Part shown: positions 1 to 49,663 of the stretch, in pieces
How the letters are laid out: each line of letters opens with the position of its first letter
How positions within the stretch are numbered: position 1 is the first letter of the stretch
Assembly: GCA_012862575.1 (NCBI GenBank)
Contig: BLSF01000056.1
Location: 231,692 to 295,691 of the forward strand
Direction of reading: 5' to 3'
Length of the DNA stretch: 64,000 bases
DNA from: Parietichytrium sp. I65-24A
Lineage: Eukaryota > Sar > Bigyra > Thraustochytrida > Thraustochytriidae
Made by a program: the position numbers and the translations under genes
Notes under the pieces: model-generated
The model's database searches: none
Told to the model about the DNA's origin: nothing
Seen by the model: only the letters and a program-made list of their open reading frames with translations

Positions 1-2423
1 TACTGCAACCGTAGTGCACACCGTAAAGCAGGAGAATTGCTTTCCGACTCGTGGGAATCGAGATGAAATAATTTAATGAATCCAGAGAATCCAAAGACAA
101 GTTCTCATCCCTGCGCAAGGTGGCTCTCACGGCCCGGACGTATCGATGTGGTATGATGTGGTACAGTACTCACAGTCAGTACCCAGTACATTTCTCGTCC
201 GTGGTCTGAATTAAAATTACTGTCGGAGCGAATGTGTGTAGTCTTGGAGGAGTCAGAAATGACACGTGAGGAAAAGTCGTGGCTGGAAAGTACTCGTTTA
301 CATTCCCAAAAGGACTCTTCCTTTCTTCCTCTTACTCACAGATGATTCGTGGAACAATTACTTTTAGTTCAGATATCAGTTCAGAACTGTTGTGCTCCCT
401 CTTGTTGTTTGGCAAATGCGCGTCGTCACTGGGGGAGAGAGAACCTTGCAACAAGAAACACTTATGATTATCTCTGGGTACAGTTCTATTACCGGTTCAA
501 CTTGTAGGGCGCAGGTACTAGGTACAGTACCGTACTCCTCGTTGTTCTTGAGAGAGTGTGCAGTCGAGAATATACTTTCCACAGCCATGAGTTTTGCTCC
601 ACATTTCACCCTTCTCACATTCCAACAAGGGTTGTCATCGAGACCTCATTTCTAACCATTCACCCACTTCAAAGAAAACAAGTTTAGCCAGTCAATCACA
701 TGACGATCACAGTCATGATGACGACGGGGGAACATCAACTTTCTACTCAGTGCTACGCACCCTCAGCTTTGGTAGAATTACATTTGCGTCCTGATTCGCC
801 GTTGGATCTGAGATCATCACATATCTATCACAGAACCAAAGCCAAAGCGAGATGGGAAGAGAGAGTTGATTTGTTGCGATGGGAAGAGACCCACCTCTCT
901 TTGGTCATCAGCTCAATTATTGCTTTACTGCTAATAACTTTGAGAAGCCCGACGCCTTGCGCGTTTGCTAGCCATGGGAGGCTTCCGAGCCAGGCTCTAT
1001 TCGATTGTTTAAGAGAGCATAACACAGTGCTTGCCAGTGCTGTCCACTTTTTACGCTACGCAATTTTTGCGGTCCCTCACAAATATCTTGCCTCCTGGTT
1101 GGGGCCAGGGCAGGAAGCAAGTAGGAGAAAGAAGTCCTATAGAAGCTGCTCTCAATCCCGTGATGCACCGATCTGAAATATAGGAGTATGACTACTAAGC
1201 AGCGTTGCTGGCTTCCGACTAGTAGAACTCTGGGCGAAGGGCCGTCTCTACTTTTTCGTAGAGCACAAAAATTGCAATGCTTGCAAGCGTCATAAAAGAG
1301 AGCAATGTTTTGTATTTCACAGTCGATCTCAAATGAAAGTTTCAACCCGCTCGAATGCTCCTACTGCGCTGCGTACGTGGGATCACCAGTATCACCTTTG
1401 GAAGGGCGGGTTGAAATATGTTGATTGAAATACTCAATTTCTTTCCGTTTCGCGTCACTAACGATTGCTATGCTGTCCTTTACAGTCCACAGGCAAGCCG
1501 ACGTACTTTTAGGCTAGCACGAAACTATACACATCCCACTAAGTCGCAGGTCTCCCCTTTCGTACCTACCAGGTGCTGAACGGCAACATACCCGGATTCT
1601 AGTCTAAAAGCTATAGGCAACTTACAAGAACTTGTCAGGTCAGACCACCTTTCCGTCTCTCCCCTCCTTGCCTCCCCTTCACCTTTTTCCTGCCTGCACC
1701 ATCTGGTACCGGTACTAGTAACAATGGATACCAATGGAGAAACTTTTTGGAAAAGCAGAATCAGAATTCAAGTTTTGAAACAAAATTTTCTCCTTTGCCT
1801 CACGTGCTGAGACACTTGGACATCACTGTTCTGAGGCTATTTTGTCGATGTTTTGGATCGTTCACGTCCATTGGACGAATTAGACGTCGCTATTCTCTCA
1901 AACAGAGTGAACAAGTCGCTCGATTCGCTCGATCTCTTTTTTGCGGTACTAGTACTACCTGTGAGTACAGTATGCAAAGGTCTTATTTAGCATATGTAGC
2001 AGGAGGGTTTTCCAATCAACACAGTTGTTGATCCCCCTCTAGAAAGACTCTCTCTTTCTTATTCCCATTTTAGACGGGGCACTACTAGTTCTACTAGTTC
2101 ACCTCCTCCGCCTCCTTGCCAAGTTCTCACATGGTGGAGCAGTATCAAGGCATAGGCTTACAGCACCAACGCTCGATCCAACTCACAGAAAATTTAGGTA
2201 CGGAGGATGGACCGCGTGAAGGGCTGCAAGAAAACAAATGAGCCACTTTTCATTTCTTGACTGAATTTGATTGATTTTGATTGATTGATTGAGAGAAAGT
2301 AAAAGAAAATGAGTTGAGTTGAGTTAATGATGGAGGCGGAGGTTGCTCAGTGTCTCTCCATAGCCACCCAATCCCAATACGACCCTCGCAGTCAATTGAC
2401 CCTCCTCCACGTCTCTCCACTTC

Positions 2424-2464
2424 TTCACAATTCACAATTCACAATTCACAATTCAGAATTCAGA
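2424..2464. repeat. Heptanucleotide TTCACAA tandem array
   Basis: The 7-bp unit TTCACAA is repeated about four times and then degenerates into TTCAGAA. A TTGATTGA-type array lies just upstream at 2266-2291. Both sit in non-coding DNA. Confidence 0.8.
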
Positions 2465-2819
2465 TTCCCTTGAGGAAAACAGCACTCGCTCATCCTTTCG
2501 ACATCTCAGAATCTCTCTCGAGCTCAGAATCTCTCTATTTGTCCTGTTAACTCGGCGTGTTTTTCTGGTGGGAAAGGGGAGTGGGGAAGGGGGTAACGAG
2601 GGAGGGAAAATAGCGGTGGAATCACTGGGTGCCAGTGGAATCTTGCAGAAACGAGGATCAGTTTTCTGTTGCTGATCAAGGAAAAGCCTTTGTTCTCGTT
2701 CTACAGGATCGTGGAGCCACGCAAGTGGATACTCAATATTTCCTAATTATATTTAAGACTGACCTGCGTGCTATTCGCATCTTCCAACGAATGACGCGCT
2801 CCTAGCAACAGGTGAAAGG

Positions 2820-3090
2820 GCTTTCACTACTCTCAACGTATTTCGAGGTCCTAGATATGGAACAGGGTGCTTCTGTCATCGACCCAGCGTGTTCCCAAGG
2901 CCTAAGTACTGGCCTAAAAGGAAGGAGGTTCATGGAACTCCTGAGAGACTCCCTCCAGGTGCCTATGATATCGACCTGTCGTTACTTGCATCTTGCCAAA
3001 GTTTAAACCGCGCAGCCCGGTTCGAGAGGATTGGCGCCTGTAATGTTCGGCTTATTCGATATCCTGTTCAGGTGTGGTTTAAAGTTGCGA
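2820..3090 (+). pseudogene. Possible relic of an STPG-repeat (sperm-tail PG-rich) protein
   Basis: One plus-strand frame (third-phase codons, for example 2889) has no usable ATG but reads like protein. It contains PPGAYDID followed after about ten residues by SLNRAARFE, preceded by FRGPRYGTG. The spacing P-G-A-Y-D ... F/L-N-x-A-x-R-F resembles sperm-tail PG-rich repeats of axonemal proteins. The frame then degenerates into low-quality sequence and stops at about 3212. I see no start, and other frames nearby also look coding-like for short spans, which fits a decayed or frame-broken gene. A chance similarity is possible. Confidence 0.28.
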
Positions 3091-3143
3091 TTCACATAAA
3101 GTGTATTCTCCGCTATGCTCCTTGCATCCCAACTTGTTTAACA

Positions 3144-3187
3144 CATCACTACGGCAAGGTTACAGCTGCTCATTATCGTTCGCCTCG
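3144..3187 (-). repeat. Dispersed CAGCTG-core repeat, copy 1
   Basis: The reverse complement matches the shared core found at five other places in the window: (A)CGA..GA..GTGAGCAGCTGTAACC followed by TGCCGTAGTG. All copies lie in non-coding DNA. Confidence 0.6.
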
Positions 3188-3399
3188 ATGTTTATCAGAG
3201 GGCAAATGCTAGAGTTTGCGTTTATTTTCTATTTCATACTCCTGAATTCTGATTTTCATGGTGGTCACTACAGCTGCAAGTAGAACTTGGAAGCACGAAA
3301 GTCGGGCGCTGGGCAAGTGTGGGTGTGCAGCCCTACTCCTCTCTCCTATTTTTTCAGTAATGTAGAACTTTCCATCTTGTTAGCTGTCAGCATAGCTGT

Positions 3400-4080
3400 G
3401 TTTGCTAGCTAGCGAATTCAAGAGTTCATCTGAAGCTCTCGACAACTTGCCGCCATTGACGACCGACCACCCATTCTTGAAAAATGAGCTCTACCAGATG
3501 TTAGATGCAAACTGCGAGGAACTGCAAGACTTCAAGAAGAATGCAAACAATCCAAGGAGCAACTAACTCCACGAGAGTGTTGTGCATGTAATCTGCGATG
3601 TGGGTTCTAGTCAGCTTTGCTCTGCGATTCTGGGCTCTCCCTTCACCGGACTAGAACAATCTATATCAAAGCCTTATTCAGAACAAAAGGTCGGCCTTCC
3701 TGATCCACAGATATCCGCAGTCTCGATGGGCTGAGCTCATTCAAGCGATCCAACGGGGCCCTCAACGCCGCTGTGACGCGAACGCGGTTCCCTCTGCAGT
3801 CCACTGAACTCCGAGCAAATGCTCGTCGACTCCGTTCCAAAGCGTCGATGAATGCGGTATACAGATTGGATGTCGCAGTTCTGCTCACCCCAAAGCATGG
3901 CGCACTTTGCAAGCTACCTGTGTCAATTTCCCTTGGGTTCTGCACGACTATGAACTCTAAATAAAAATGTTGACTACGAACCTGCAGCCATTGCGGAACT
4001 GCAGCGGATGAGCTTGCCAACAGTGCGGAATTCAAGAATTCGTCAAGAAGCTACTAGTCCCCAAGCTCCTCCCCACTAGT
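3400..4080 (+). pseudogene. Patch of short coding-like fragments, possible gene relic
   Basis: Between 3404 and 3569 a plus frame without ATG reads as an acidic, helix-like peptide (for example DHPFLKNELYQMLDANCEEL). A second short frame near 4010-4060 contains ANSAEFKNSS, which resembles ASEFKSSSEA in the first patch. Each piece ends at a stop after 30-60 codons. This could be a duplicated, decayed exon, but no family is recognised. Confidence 0.22.
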
Positions 4081-47427: not shown

Positions 47428-47462
47428 AGCGCTTCCGCGCCAGCCCGTCGATTTCGAGTCTG

Positions 47463-47521
47463 GAGTTTGCGAGTTTGCGAGTCTGCGAGTCTGCGAGTCT
47501 GCGAGTCTGCGAGTCTGCGAG
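47463..47521. repeat. GAGTYTGC octanucleotide tandem array
   Basis: Seven tandem 8-bp units occur: two GAGTTTGC, then five GAGTCTGC, then a partial. A CGTA/GTAC tetranucleotide array lies at about 47596-47621, just outside the transposon-like element. Confidence 0.9.
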
Positions 47522-47645
47522 CGAGCCCTCGTGCTGGGCTCGTGTACGCTTCGAGAAAGTTTTGTTACCCTTCAACACAAGCCCAGTTCTTTCAGCGTAC
47601 GTACGTACGTAAGTACGTACACGCGCACACATGCTCGAAGATAGC

Positions 47646-47653
47646 CTTCCAAC
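47646..47653. repeat. Left 8-bp target-site duplication CTTCCAAC
   Basis: The octamer CTTCCAAC directly abuts the left inverted repeat. The identical octamer abuts the right inverted repeat at 49656-49663. It fits the nTnnnnAn target consensus known for Ac-type hAT elements. Confidence 0.75.
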
Positions 47654-47670
47654 ATGGGGTGCCTCACGCC
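47654..47670 (+). repeat. Left terminal inverted repeat, 17 bp
   Basis: ATGGGGTGCCTCACGCC is exactly complementary to 49639-49655. The match stops abruptly beyond 17 bp on the inner side. Confidence 0.8.
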
Positions 47671-47860
47671 ACCTTCGTTGTGAGGGGCAACAGACCTACG
47701 TGGTGCACCAGATACCGGAATATTTGCGAAACGCTTTTGCTTCGGTGTATTATCGTGCAATAAGAATATATACGAAATATGATAAGACCAAATTATATAG
47801 AAATCTATGGTGATCTGATTGACAGTGAATTGGGTGACACATGCAACGTGACCTCACATG

Positions 47861-49348
47861 TCAAGTCACGTCTGGTCGATATCTCTTGCACTGCTCCTCA
47901 CCAGCTGGTCTACACCGCTGCTCCGGGCTTCGCTCAGCTAAGCGCTTTGAGCGCCTTGGCGATGAGCTCTCTGCGACATTCTTTGAACCAATGGAAGCCG
48001 ACGGGCTGGTGGGTTCTTCAAAGTCGTAGTTCAAGTATGAGAGCCATTCTTGTGAAGCTTTTGCTTCTGCATCTTTCAATGCTTCCATCCTTGTAGTGAA
48101 ACAAAGAAGATCGCTATCGTTGAAGCCAAGCCGTGGCGTGCCCATTTGTACAGCGCTGAGAAGTTCATTGTCCCAGCGATAAAATTTTTTGAGCCATTCA
48201 GGCTGAAACTTAGGATAGATCTTGATGAGAGTGTGAGCAATGGACCCGTTCCGCCGATGCCCAATGTGCCAATATACTGATGCCTCGTCCATCGGAAGGA
48301 AACTGTATGCGAAAATATCTTCGGAGCTAATGGTGACTTGCTCTTGCGCCAGAGAAGCGCTTGAAACAATCACTTGCAACAAAAACCCTGACGGACTGCC
48401 ATCTCTTCTCTTGGGCCTGATTCGAATGGTGGGGAGCACAAACTCTGTGCCCAGGAGCTCATCAAGATACGAGGCTTCAAAGCAAATCTGAGTGTCCCCC
48501 GTTTCACTAAATTGGAGAACTGCGCTGGCAAGGAACTCAATCGTGTTGCCTCGTTTTACATTCGACGGATCATAGAGTTTTGGATTCAGCATCAATTTTT
48601 TAAATGTCGTTATCTCTCNNNNNNNNNNNNNNNNNNNNNNNNNNNNNNNNNNNNNNNNNNNNNNNNNNNNNNNNNNNNNNNNNNNNNNNNNNNNNNNNNN
48701 NNNNNNNNNNNNNNNNNNNNNNNNNNNNNNNNNNNNNNNNNNNNNNNNNNNNNNNNNNNNNNNNNNNNNNNNNNNNNNNNNNNNNNNNNNNNNNNNNNNN
48801 NNNNNNNNNNNNNNNNNNNNNNNNNNNNNNNNNNNNNNNNNNNNNNNNNNNNNNNNNNNNNNNNNNNNNNNNNNNNNNNNNNNNNNNNNNNNNNNNNNNN
48901 NNNNNNNNNNNNNNNNNNNNNNNNNNNNNNNNNNNNNNNNNNNNNNNNNNNNNNNNNNNNNNNNNNNNNNNNNNNNNNNNNNNNNNNNNNNNNNNNNNNN
49001 NNNNNNNNNNNNNNNNNNNNNNNNNNNNNNNNNNNNNNTTCTGTCAGACCGCGCTTGGTGCATGCGCTATTTTTGTAGAAATGGACGGTGCTCCAACTTT
49101 TACCCTTGATTGAGTCTATGCCTCGATGCCAATTGGCTCCGCTTGTGACACCTCTTGGGAGCCTTGAAATAAAGATTGGTAGCTCTGTTGCACCCATGCC
49201 ATGTTCGATTACCTTCACCAGGTGTTGAATCGGAACCACCCAATAATCGCGCTTGAAACCTCCCGTGCTCGATGAAGTCAAGAATTGAAAGATGGTTTTT
49301 CAGGTCCAGTTTCTCTGACATTAGGTTGACTTTCTCACTTCGCTCCAT
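47861..49348 (-). CDS. Transposon-internal ORF of unknown family, interrupted by gap and frame change
   Basis: The coding region probably starts at the ATG at 49348 (MERSEKVNLMSEKLDL). At a GGG run (plus-strand CCC at 49262-49264) the sensible reading shifts by one base into a frame that continues GFKRDYWVVPIQHLVKV up to the gap. After the gap (48618 downward) the protein resumes in the first frame with about 250 residues, ending in a Ser/Pro-rich basic tail with RRSKRLAERS, a likely nuclear-localisation signal. Total size would be near 495 residues. The visible part mixes W/F/Y-rich stretches (EASVYWHIGHRR, PEWLKKFYRWDNELL) and matches no family I know. Position inside matched termini suggests a transposase or cargo gene. 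The frame change next to a gap may be an assembly error as well as real decay. Confidence 0.5.
48619..49038. other. Assembly gap (420 N)
   Basis: A run of 420 undetermined bases lies within the transposon-like element. The frames on the two sides disagree, so the gap length is likely an estimate. Repeats often cause such gaps, consistent with a multicopy element. Confidence 1.
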
Positions 49349-49359
49349 GCGGAATGTTG

Positions 49360-49440
49360 CGACTTAAACAAAGCACTTTGTTTATATCGAGAGAAGAACC
49401 TCAAAGCTCGCGATCAACCCTTTTTGCTTTGTTTAAGTCG
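49360..49440. repeat. 15-bp inverted repeat near right end of transposon-like element
   Basis: CGACTTAAACAAAGC (49360-49374) and its exact reverse complement (49426-49440) are separated by 51 bp. They lie just upstream of the internal ORF start and inside the right terminus. Such subterminal repeats are often transposase-binding sites, and a promoter hairpin is also possible. Confidence 0.85.
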
Positions 49441-49638
49441 TCTTGCTCGACTCGCTGCGCGGCAGCGAAGTCAAAGGATCTCGCACGATTTTGCCCATAC
49501 ATTTGATATGAAACGGATAAATCGGAAGCTTCGCGGAAGAATTGATTTCTAGAACCAGACTTGAATGCTAGTTAAACTTTTCTCAGAACATAGGCATAAA
49601 AATAGGATAGTTTTCCATGGCGGAGGTCTTTTTAATTA

Positions 49639-49655
49639 GGCGTGAGGCACCCCAT
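49639..49655 (-). repeat. Right terminal inverted repeat, 17 bp
   Basis: GGCGTGAGGCACCCCAT is the exact reverse complement of 47654-47670. Confidence 0.8.
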
Positions 49656-49663
49656 CTTCCAAC
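49656..49663. repeat. Right 8-bp target-site duplication CTTCCAAC
   Basis: Identical to 47646-47653 and directly outside the right inverted repeat. Confidence 0.75.

What the first reader, a model, noticed from the sequence alone, without database searches (positions are those of the whole stretch)
47646..49663. Complete-looking DNA transposon with unfamiliar internal protein
An exact 8-bp direct repeat (CTTCCAAC) flanks an exact 17-bp inverted repeat (ATGGGGTGCCTCACGCC) about 2.0 kb apart, and a single ORF lies between. Perfect terminal and target repeats imply recent insertion. The duplication fits the nTnnnnAn pattern of Ac-type hAT elements, but the visible protein (a C-terminal 250 residues ending in a basic Ser/Pro tail) shows no hATC or DDE signature I can recognise. 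It may be a new hAT-like lineage, another superfamily with 8-bp duplications, or a non-autonomous element carrying a captured gene.
Basis: partly seen in the sequence, partly recalled or inferred. Interest (0 to 1): 0.75.

Follow-up and report, generated by a model that had tools for sequence, protein, structure and literature searches.

The report
Recently moved, internally deleted DNA transposon
This is a recently inserted "jumping gene" that probably lost the middle (cutting) part of its own transposase and is moved by a relative's enzyme; it is a sound new element of a familiar kind, whose full-length cousin in the same genome carries a transposase that no library searched here recognised.

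Summary
It is a real mobile element: two further copies, 99.9% identical outside one 5-bp indel, sit at different sites (C14, C19). A 420-base assembly gap (48619-49038) hides its middle in the window.

The gene is not a captured host gene. It reads on the minus strand; its N-terminal part lies right of the gap, its C-terminal part left. Both parts match a diverged element on C24 and, more weakly, a complete 4070-bp element on C43 (8-bp TSD, 16-bp TIR) whose ~1200-aa transposase contains D...DxxH...E motifs. C24 and the C42/C46 elements are the same transposase with the catalytic core deleted. The window element, by its size, is most likely core-less too: a KP-like non-autonomous derivative.

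hAT is not supported: the nTnnnnAn pattern fails in the other three complete TSDs and no hAT profile matches. Motif order and TSD resemble the P superfamily, but no P profile or pairwise score does, so superfamily stays open. The true gap length, and hence core loss, is the main uncertainty.

The parts
47646..47653 (.). left 8-bp target-site duplication CTTCCAAC
   Evidence: exact repeat
47654..47670 (+). left terminal inverted repeat (3' end of the gene)
   Evidence: same end at C14:584741 and C19:201186
47672..47694 (+). subterminal motif CCTTCGTTGTGAGGGGNAANAGA shared exactly with the C24 element near the same end; candidate transposase-binding site
47861..48618 (-). C-terminal part of the transposase-derived gene (251 aa, basic Ser/Pro/Lys/Arg tail)
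   Evidence: C24 39% id E 1e-30, C43 28% id
48619..49038 (.). assembly gap of 420 N inside the gene
49039..49348 (-). N-terminal part of the same gene; ATG at 49348-49346; one frame break near 49240-49260
   Evidence: 39% id to C24 residues 7-89, E 1.5e-14
49360..49440 (.). perfect 16-bp inverted repeat (49360-49375 / 49425-49440) just upstream of the start codon
   Evidence: C24 and C43 also have inverted repeats upstream of or overlapping their start, with different sequence
49490..49513 (-). subterminal motif TTTCATATNAAATGTATGGGNAAA, identical in C24 at nearly the same distance (~142 bp) from the end
49639..49655 (-). right terminal inverted repeat (5' end of the gene)
49656..49663 (.). 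right 8-bp target-site duplication CTTCCAAC

Best explanation
A non-autonomous cut-and-paste DNA transposon: an internally deleted derivative of an 8-bp-TSD, TIR-bearing element family whose full-length form (C43, 4070 bp) encodes a ~1200-aa DDE-type transposase. The window copy keeps both ends (TIRs and subterminal sites), the first ~115 codons and the last ~250 codons, and most likely lacks the helix-turn-helix/RNase H core. Transposase made by an autonomous relative binds the ends, cuts the element out and inserts it with an 8-bp stagger (shown: TSD, TIR, several near-identical copies; inferred: cut-and-paste and mobilisation in trans). The remaining N+C-terminal protein, if made, should bind the element ends or multimerise without cutting, and so could act as a KP-like repressor (inferred, untested).
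For: TSD/TIR exact and beyond chance. Three copies with different flanks; 1 substitution in 879 bp against C19, and 1 substitution plus one 5-bp indel in 965 bp against C14. The blind TSD+TIR scan finds exactly one pair in each of the C43 (4070 bp, GGTCCGTC), C46 (2077 bp, GATTGCGA) and C76 (710 bp, CGCGAGAG) regions. Control pattern count for the C43 TIR is 0 against 9 hits. Both ends of the window gene match C24 (E 1e-30 and 1.5e-14) and the C-terminal part matches C43 (E 2.5e-7). C42 and C46 share one 2.4-kb deletion of the core (C43 positions ~900 to 3322), and C24 joins N and C parts in one 361-codon frame without a core. C43 has SMDEI, FDCASLN, FDPEHVLK and CNETIHS in catalytic order. 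dN/dS between window and C24 is about 0.35 in both parts, with dS near saturation.
Against: The window gene is interrupted by a gap whose stated 420 bases may be wrong: the C14 and C19 gaps (294 and 847 N) do not fit a 2002-bp element either. A core-bearing copy is therefore not excluded. The N-terminal frame of the only visible copy is broken, so the protein may not be made. Purifying selection could date from a time when the lineage still encoded full transposase. The C43 TIR differs from the window TIR, so C43 may not be the helper.
Confidence: 0.75

Rival explanations
1. Full-length autonomous element whose catalytic core is collapsed in the assembly gap.
For: All three copies break inside the gene, two at the identical base; gap lengths are inconsistent between copies. 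Recent near-identical copies need an active transposase somewhere.
Against: The gap is given as 420 bases and ~2.4 kb would be needed; C24, C42 and C46, which assembled across, are core-less; no core sequence except C43's is found anywhere in the genome.
Confidence: 0.18
2. A hAT element (Ac-like).
For: 8-bp TSD; [quoted passage not shown]
Against: No hAT profile in Pfam at E up to 10 for the window or C43 proteins; three of four complete TSDs do not fit nTnnnnAn; ends start ATGGGG/ACGGGG.
Confidence: 0.07
3. Non-autonomous element carrying a captured host gene.
For: No family profile recognises the protein.
Against: All genome matches to it are other elements of this group, and it corresponds to the two ends of the C43 transposase.
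Confidence: 0.02

Closest known systems
P superfamily (Drosophila P element, vertebrate THAP9) and its internally deleted derivatives such as KP
   Same: 8-bp TSDs; full-length plus internally deleted copies that keep N-terminal coding sequence and both ends (PMC7776569, PMC12393704); subterminal inverted repeats; motif order D, D..N, DxxHhhK, long insertion, E in C43.
   Different: No THAP, HTH, RNase H, GBD or C-terminal P profile matches, while the same scan gives six for Drosophila P; pairwise score to Drosophila P (sequence verified against 6p5a for residues 1-569) is not above shuffles; transposase is ~1200 aa with an extra C-terminal domain.
hAT superfamily
   Same: 8-bp TSD, DxxH-type signature
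   Different: no hAT profile, TSD consensus not met, different terminal bases
C43 element (this genome, C43:313349-317418)
   Same: same transposase family at N and C ends; 8-bp TSD; TIR A[CT]GGGG
   Different: complete core; TIR and protein strongly diverged (C-terminal part 28% identity)

Membership tests
cut-and-paste DNA transposon with TIRs | matching TIRs flanked by target-site duplication | tested here: met
cut-and-paste DNA transposon with TIRs | several copies at different sites | tested here: met
cut-and-paste DNA transposon with TIRs | empty site in another strain or allele | not testable with these tools
   only one assembly held
P superfamily | 8-bp TSD | tested here: met
   four complete TSDs of 8 bp
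P superfamily | P-type RNase H, GBD, HTH or THAP domains by profile | tested here: not met
   no Pfam hit for the joined C43 protein; positive control works
P superfamily | catalytic D, D, E with DxxH and long insertion in order | tested here: inconclusive
   motifs seen by eye in C43 only; no significant alignment to Drosophila P
hAT superfamily | nTnnnnAn 8-bp TSD (Ac-type) | tested here: not met
   1 of 4 complete TSDs fits
hAT superfamily | hATC or hAT RNase H domain | tested here: not met
Kolobok | TTAA TSD | tested here: not met
KP-like repressor element | N-terminal region and ends kept, catalytic core deleted | tested here: inconclusive
   shown for C24, C42 and C46; gap prevents proof in the window
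KP-like repressor element | product represses transposition | not testable with these tools
   needs experiment

The most novel reading that the evidence does not exclude
The C43-type transposase founds a new superfamily-level lineage of 8-bp-TSD DDE transposons in this protist group, and core-less N+C-terminal copies have been kept under selection in two sublineages as a trans-acting repressor.
Probability: 0.15. Interest if true: 0.6.

Novelty: new member of a known kind. Interest (0 to 1): 0.4.

Why it matters
It identifies a recently active DNA transposon group, with a full-length and several deleted members, in a little-studied eukaryote genome. Its transposase escapes current profile libraries, so such elements would be missed by routine annotation. 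If the core-less proteins are functional, it would give a second natural case, far from insects, to test whether deletion derivatives restrain their parent element.

Tried and rejected
Pfam scans of all pieces and of the joined C43 protein: only a HopW1-1 match at E 0.02-0.19, far below its cut-off, treated as chance. PDB sequence search of the C43 pieces: nothing relevant. IMG/VR scans with C43 core and C24 protein: no relatives. PF21788 in the own genome: nothing, and no control genome rang either, so uninformative. Pairwise and hhalign comparison of the C43 core with Drosophila P: not above shuffles. AlphaFold2 of the window C-terminal part alone: pLDDT 34, discarded, no fold search made. 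C43 proteins were not handed to structure prediction because that tool admits only window proteins and certain fetched loci. Introns were considered for the two C43 frame breaks; overlapping frames (about 50 bp each) fit single-base shifts just as well, so this is left open.

Full report
Observation. The sequence contains exactly what was described. CTTCCAAC lies at 47646-47653 and 49656-49663; ATGGGGTGCCTCACGCC lies at 47654-47670 and, inverted, at 49639-49655. In a scan of the whole window for exact 8-bp duplications around exact inverted repeats of at least 10 bp this pair is the only one, and shuffled windows give none at 9 or 10 bp.

Mobility. The genome (42.5 Mb, 172 contigs, organism not named) has two more copies, at C14:584741 and C19:201186. 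Over the readable part, C19 differs by 1 base in 879 and C14 by 1 base and one 5-bp deletion in 965. Left flanks differ completely, so these are separate insertions and recent ones. All three copies break off in an assembly gap; C56 and C14 stop at the same base. The right-hand part occurs only in the window copy.

The gene. It runs on the minus strand. The C-terminal 251 residues lie left of the gap (47864-48616). The N-terminal part lies right of it, from an ATG at 49348, with a frame break near 49240-49260. A protein search of the genome found, besides the three copies, only C24:326680 (39% identity, E 1e-30) and C43:316537 (28%, E 2.5e-7). The C24 protein matches both window pieces (C part E 5e-30, N part E 1.5e-14), which shows that the two pieces belong to one gene.

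The full-length relative. Around C43 the blind scan returns one pair: TIR ACGGGGCTGAGCACCG with TSD GGTCCGTC, 4070 bp apart (C43:313349-317418). Inside is one gene of about 1200 codons with two frame breaks. Joined for searching only, it reads SMDEI (D419), FDCASLN (D530), FDPEHVLK (D554-H557) and CNETIHS (E793), numbered from MSSK. [quoted passage not shown] These motifs were recognised by eye; no profile or alignment confirms them.

Deleted relatives. C46 (2077 bp, TSD GATTGCGA) and C42 share one deletion of C43 positions ~900 to 3322, that is, the whole core; C25 keeps the same left breakpoint; C76 (710 bp, TSD CGCGAGAG) is shorter still. Their frames are broken by several stops. C24 is another core-less element with an open frame of 361 codons. 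Its TIRs are ATGGGGCTAACCAGAC and NTGGCCCTGACCAGAC. Window and C24 share two exact subterminal motifs, one near each end, at nearly the same distances, which are good candidates for transposase-binding sites. Between window and C24 dN/dS is about 0.35 in both parts, with dS close to saturation.

How it most likely works. Shown: TIRs, 8-bp TSD, multiple recent copies, and a gene made of transposase ends. Inferred: excision and insertion by a transposase supplied by another copy; loss of the core in the window copy (from the 420-base gap against the ~2.4 kb needed, and from C24, C42 and C46). Speculative: the leftover protein represses its relatives, as the KP protein does for P elements (PMC7776569; PMC12393704). 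The broken N-terminal frames in the window and near the C24 start argue for caution.

Classification. The joined C43 protein gives no transposase hit in Pfam, although the same scan of Drosophila P gives six (its residues 1-569 agree letter for letter with 6p5a). Pairwise comparison with P is not above shuffles. hAT fails on profile and on TSD pattern. The superfamily is therefore unassigned; by motif order and TSD size, P-like is my first guess (about even odds), with an undescribed lineage next. Repbase could not be searched, so this family may already be listed there.

Verdict. A real, recent, probably core-deleted DNA transposon of a known kind, with an unrecognised transposase lineage behind it.

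Noticed in passing
L033:1630-1673 and 3473-3515 (C24): The right flank of the C24 element begins CGGTACTA and then repeats most of the ~33 bp found just left of the element, next to a single N; this may be an empty allele stitched into the left flank, i.e. a heterozygous insertion.
   Followed up: partly
L059:2610-3881 (C65) and L058:1912-4182 (C10): Two open reading frames with host-like surroundings share the C43 transposase's CxxC and 'CFFHKF...KG.R.W.W' region (32% and 30% identity, E 4e-17 and 4e-5) but not its catalytic core; possible domestication of a transposase DNA-binding region.
   Followed up: partly
L064:1484-1516 (C4): A lone 33-bp stretch identical to the 3' end of the C43 element, with no other element sequence matched in the 3 kb held around it.
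   Followed up: partly
L034:1731-1786 and 2420-2469 (C43): Two frame changes in the full-length transposase, each inside a ~50-bp overlap of open frames; decay, sequencing error or introns not distinguished.
   Followed up: partly
window 47460-47525: Tandem array of the 8-bp unit GAGTCTGC about 120 bp from the insertion site.
   Followed up: no
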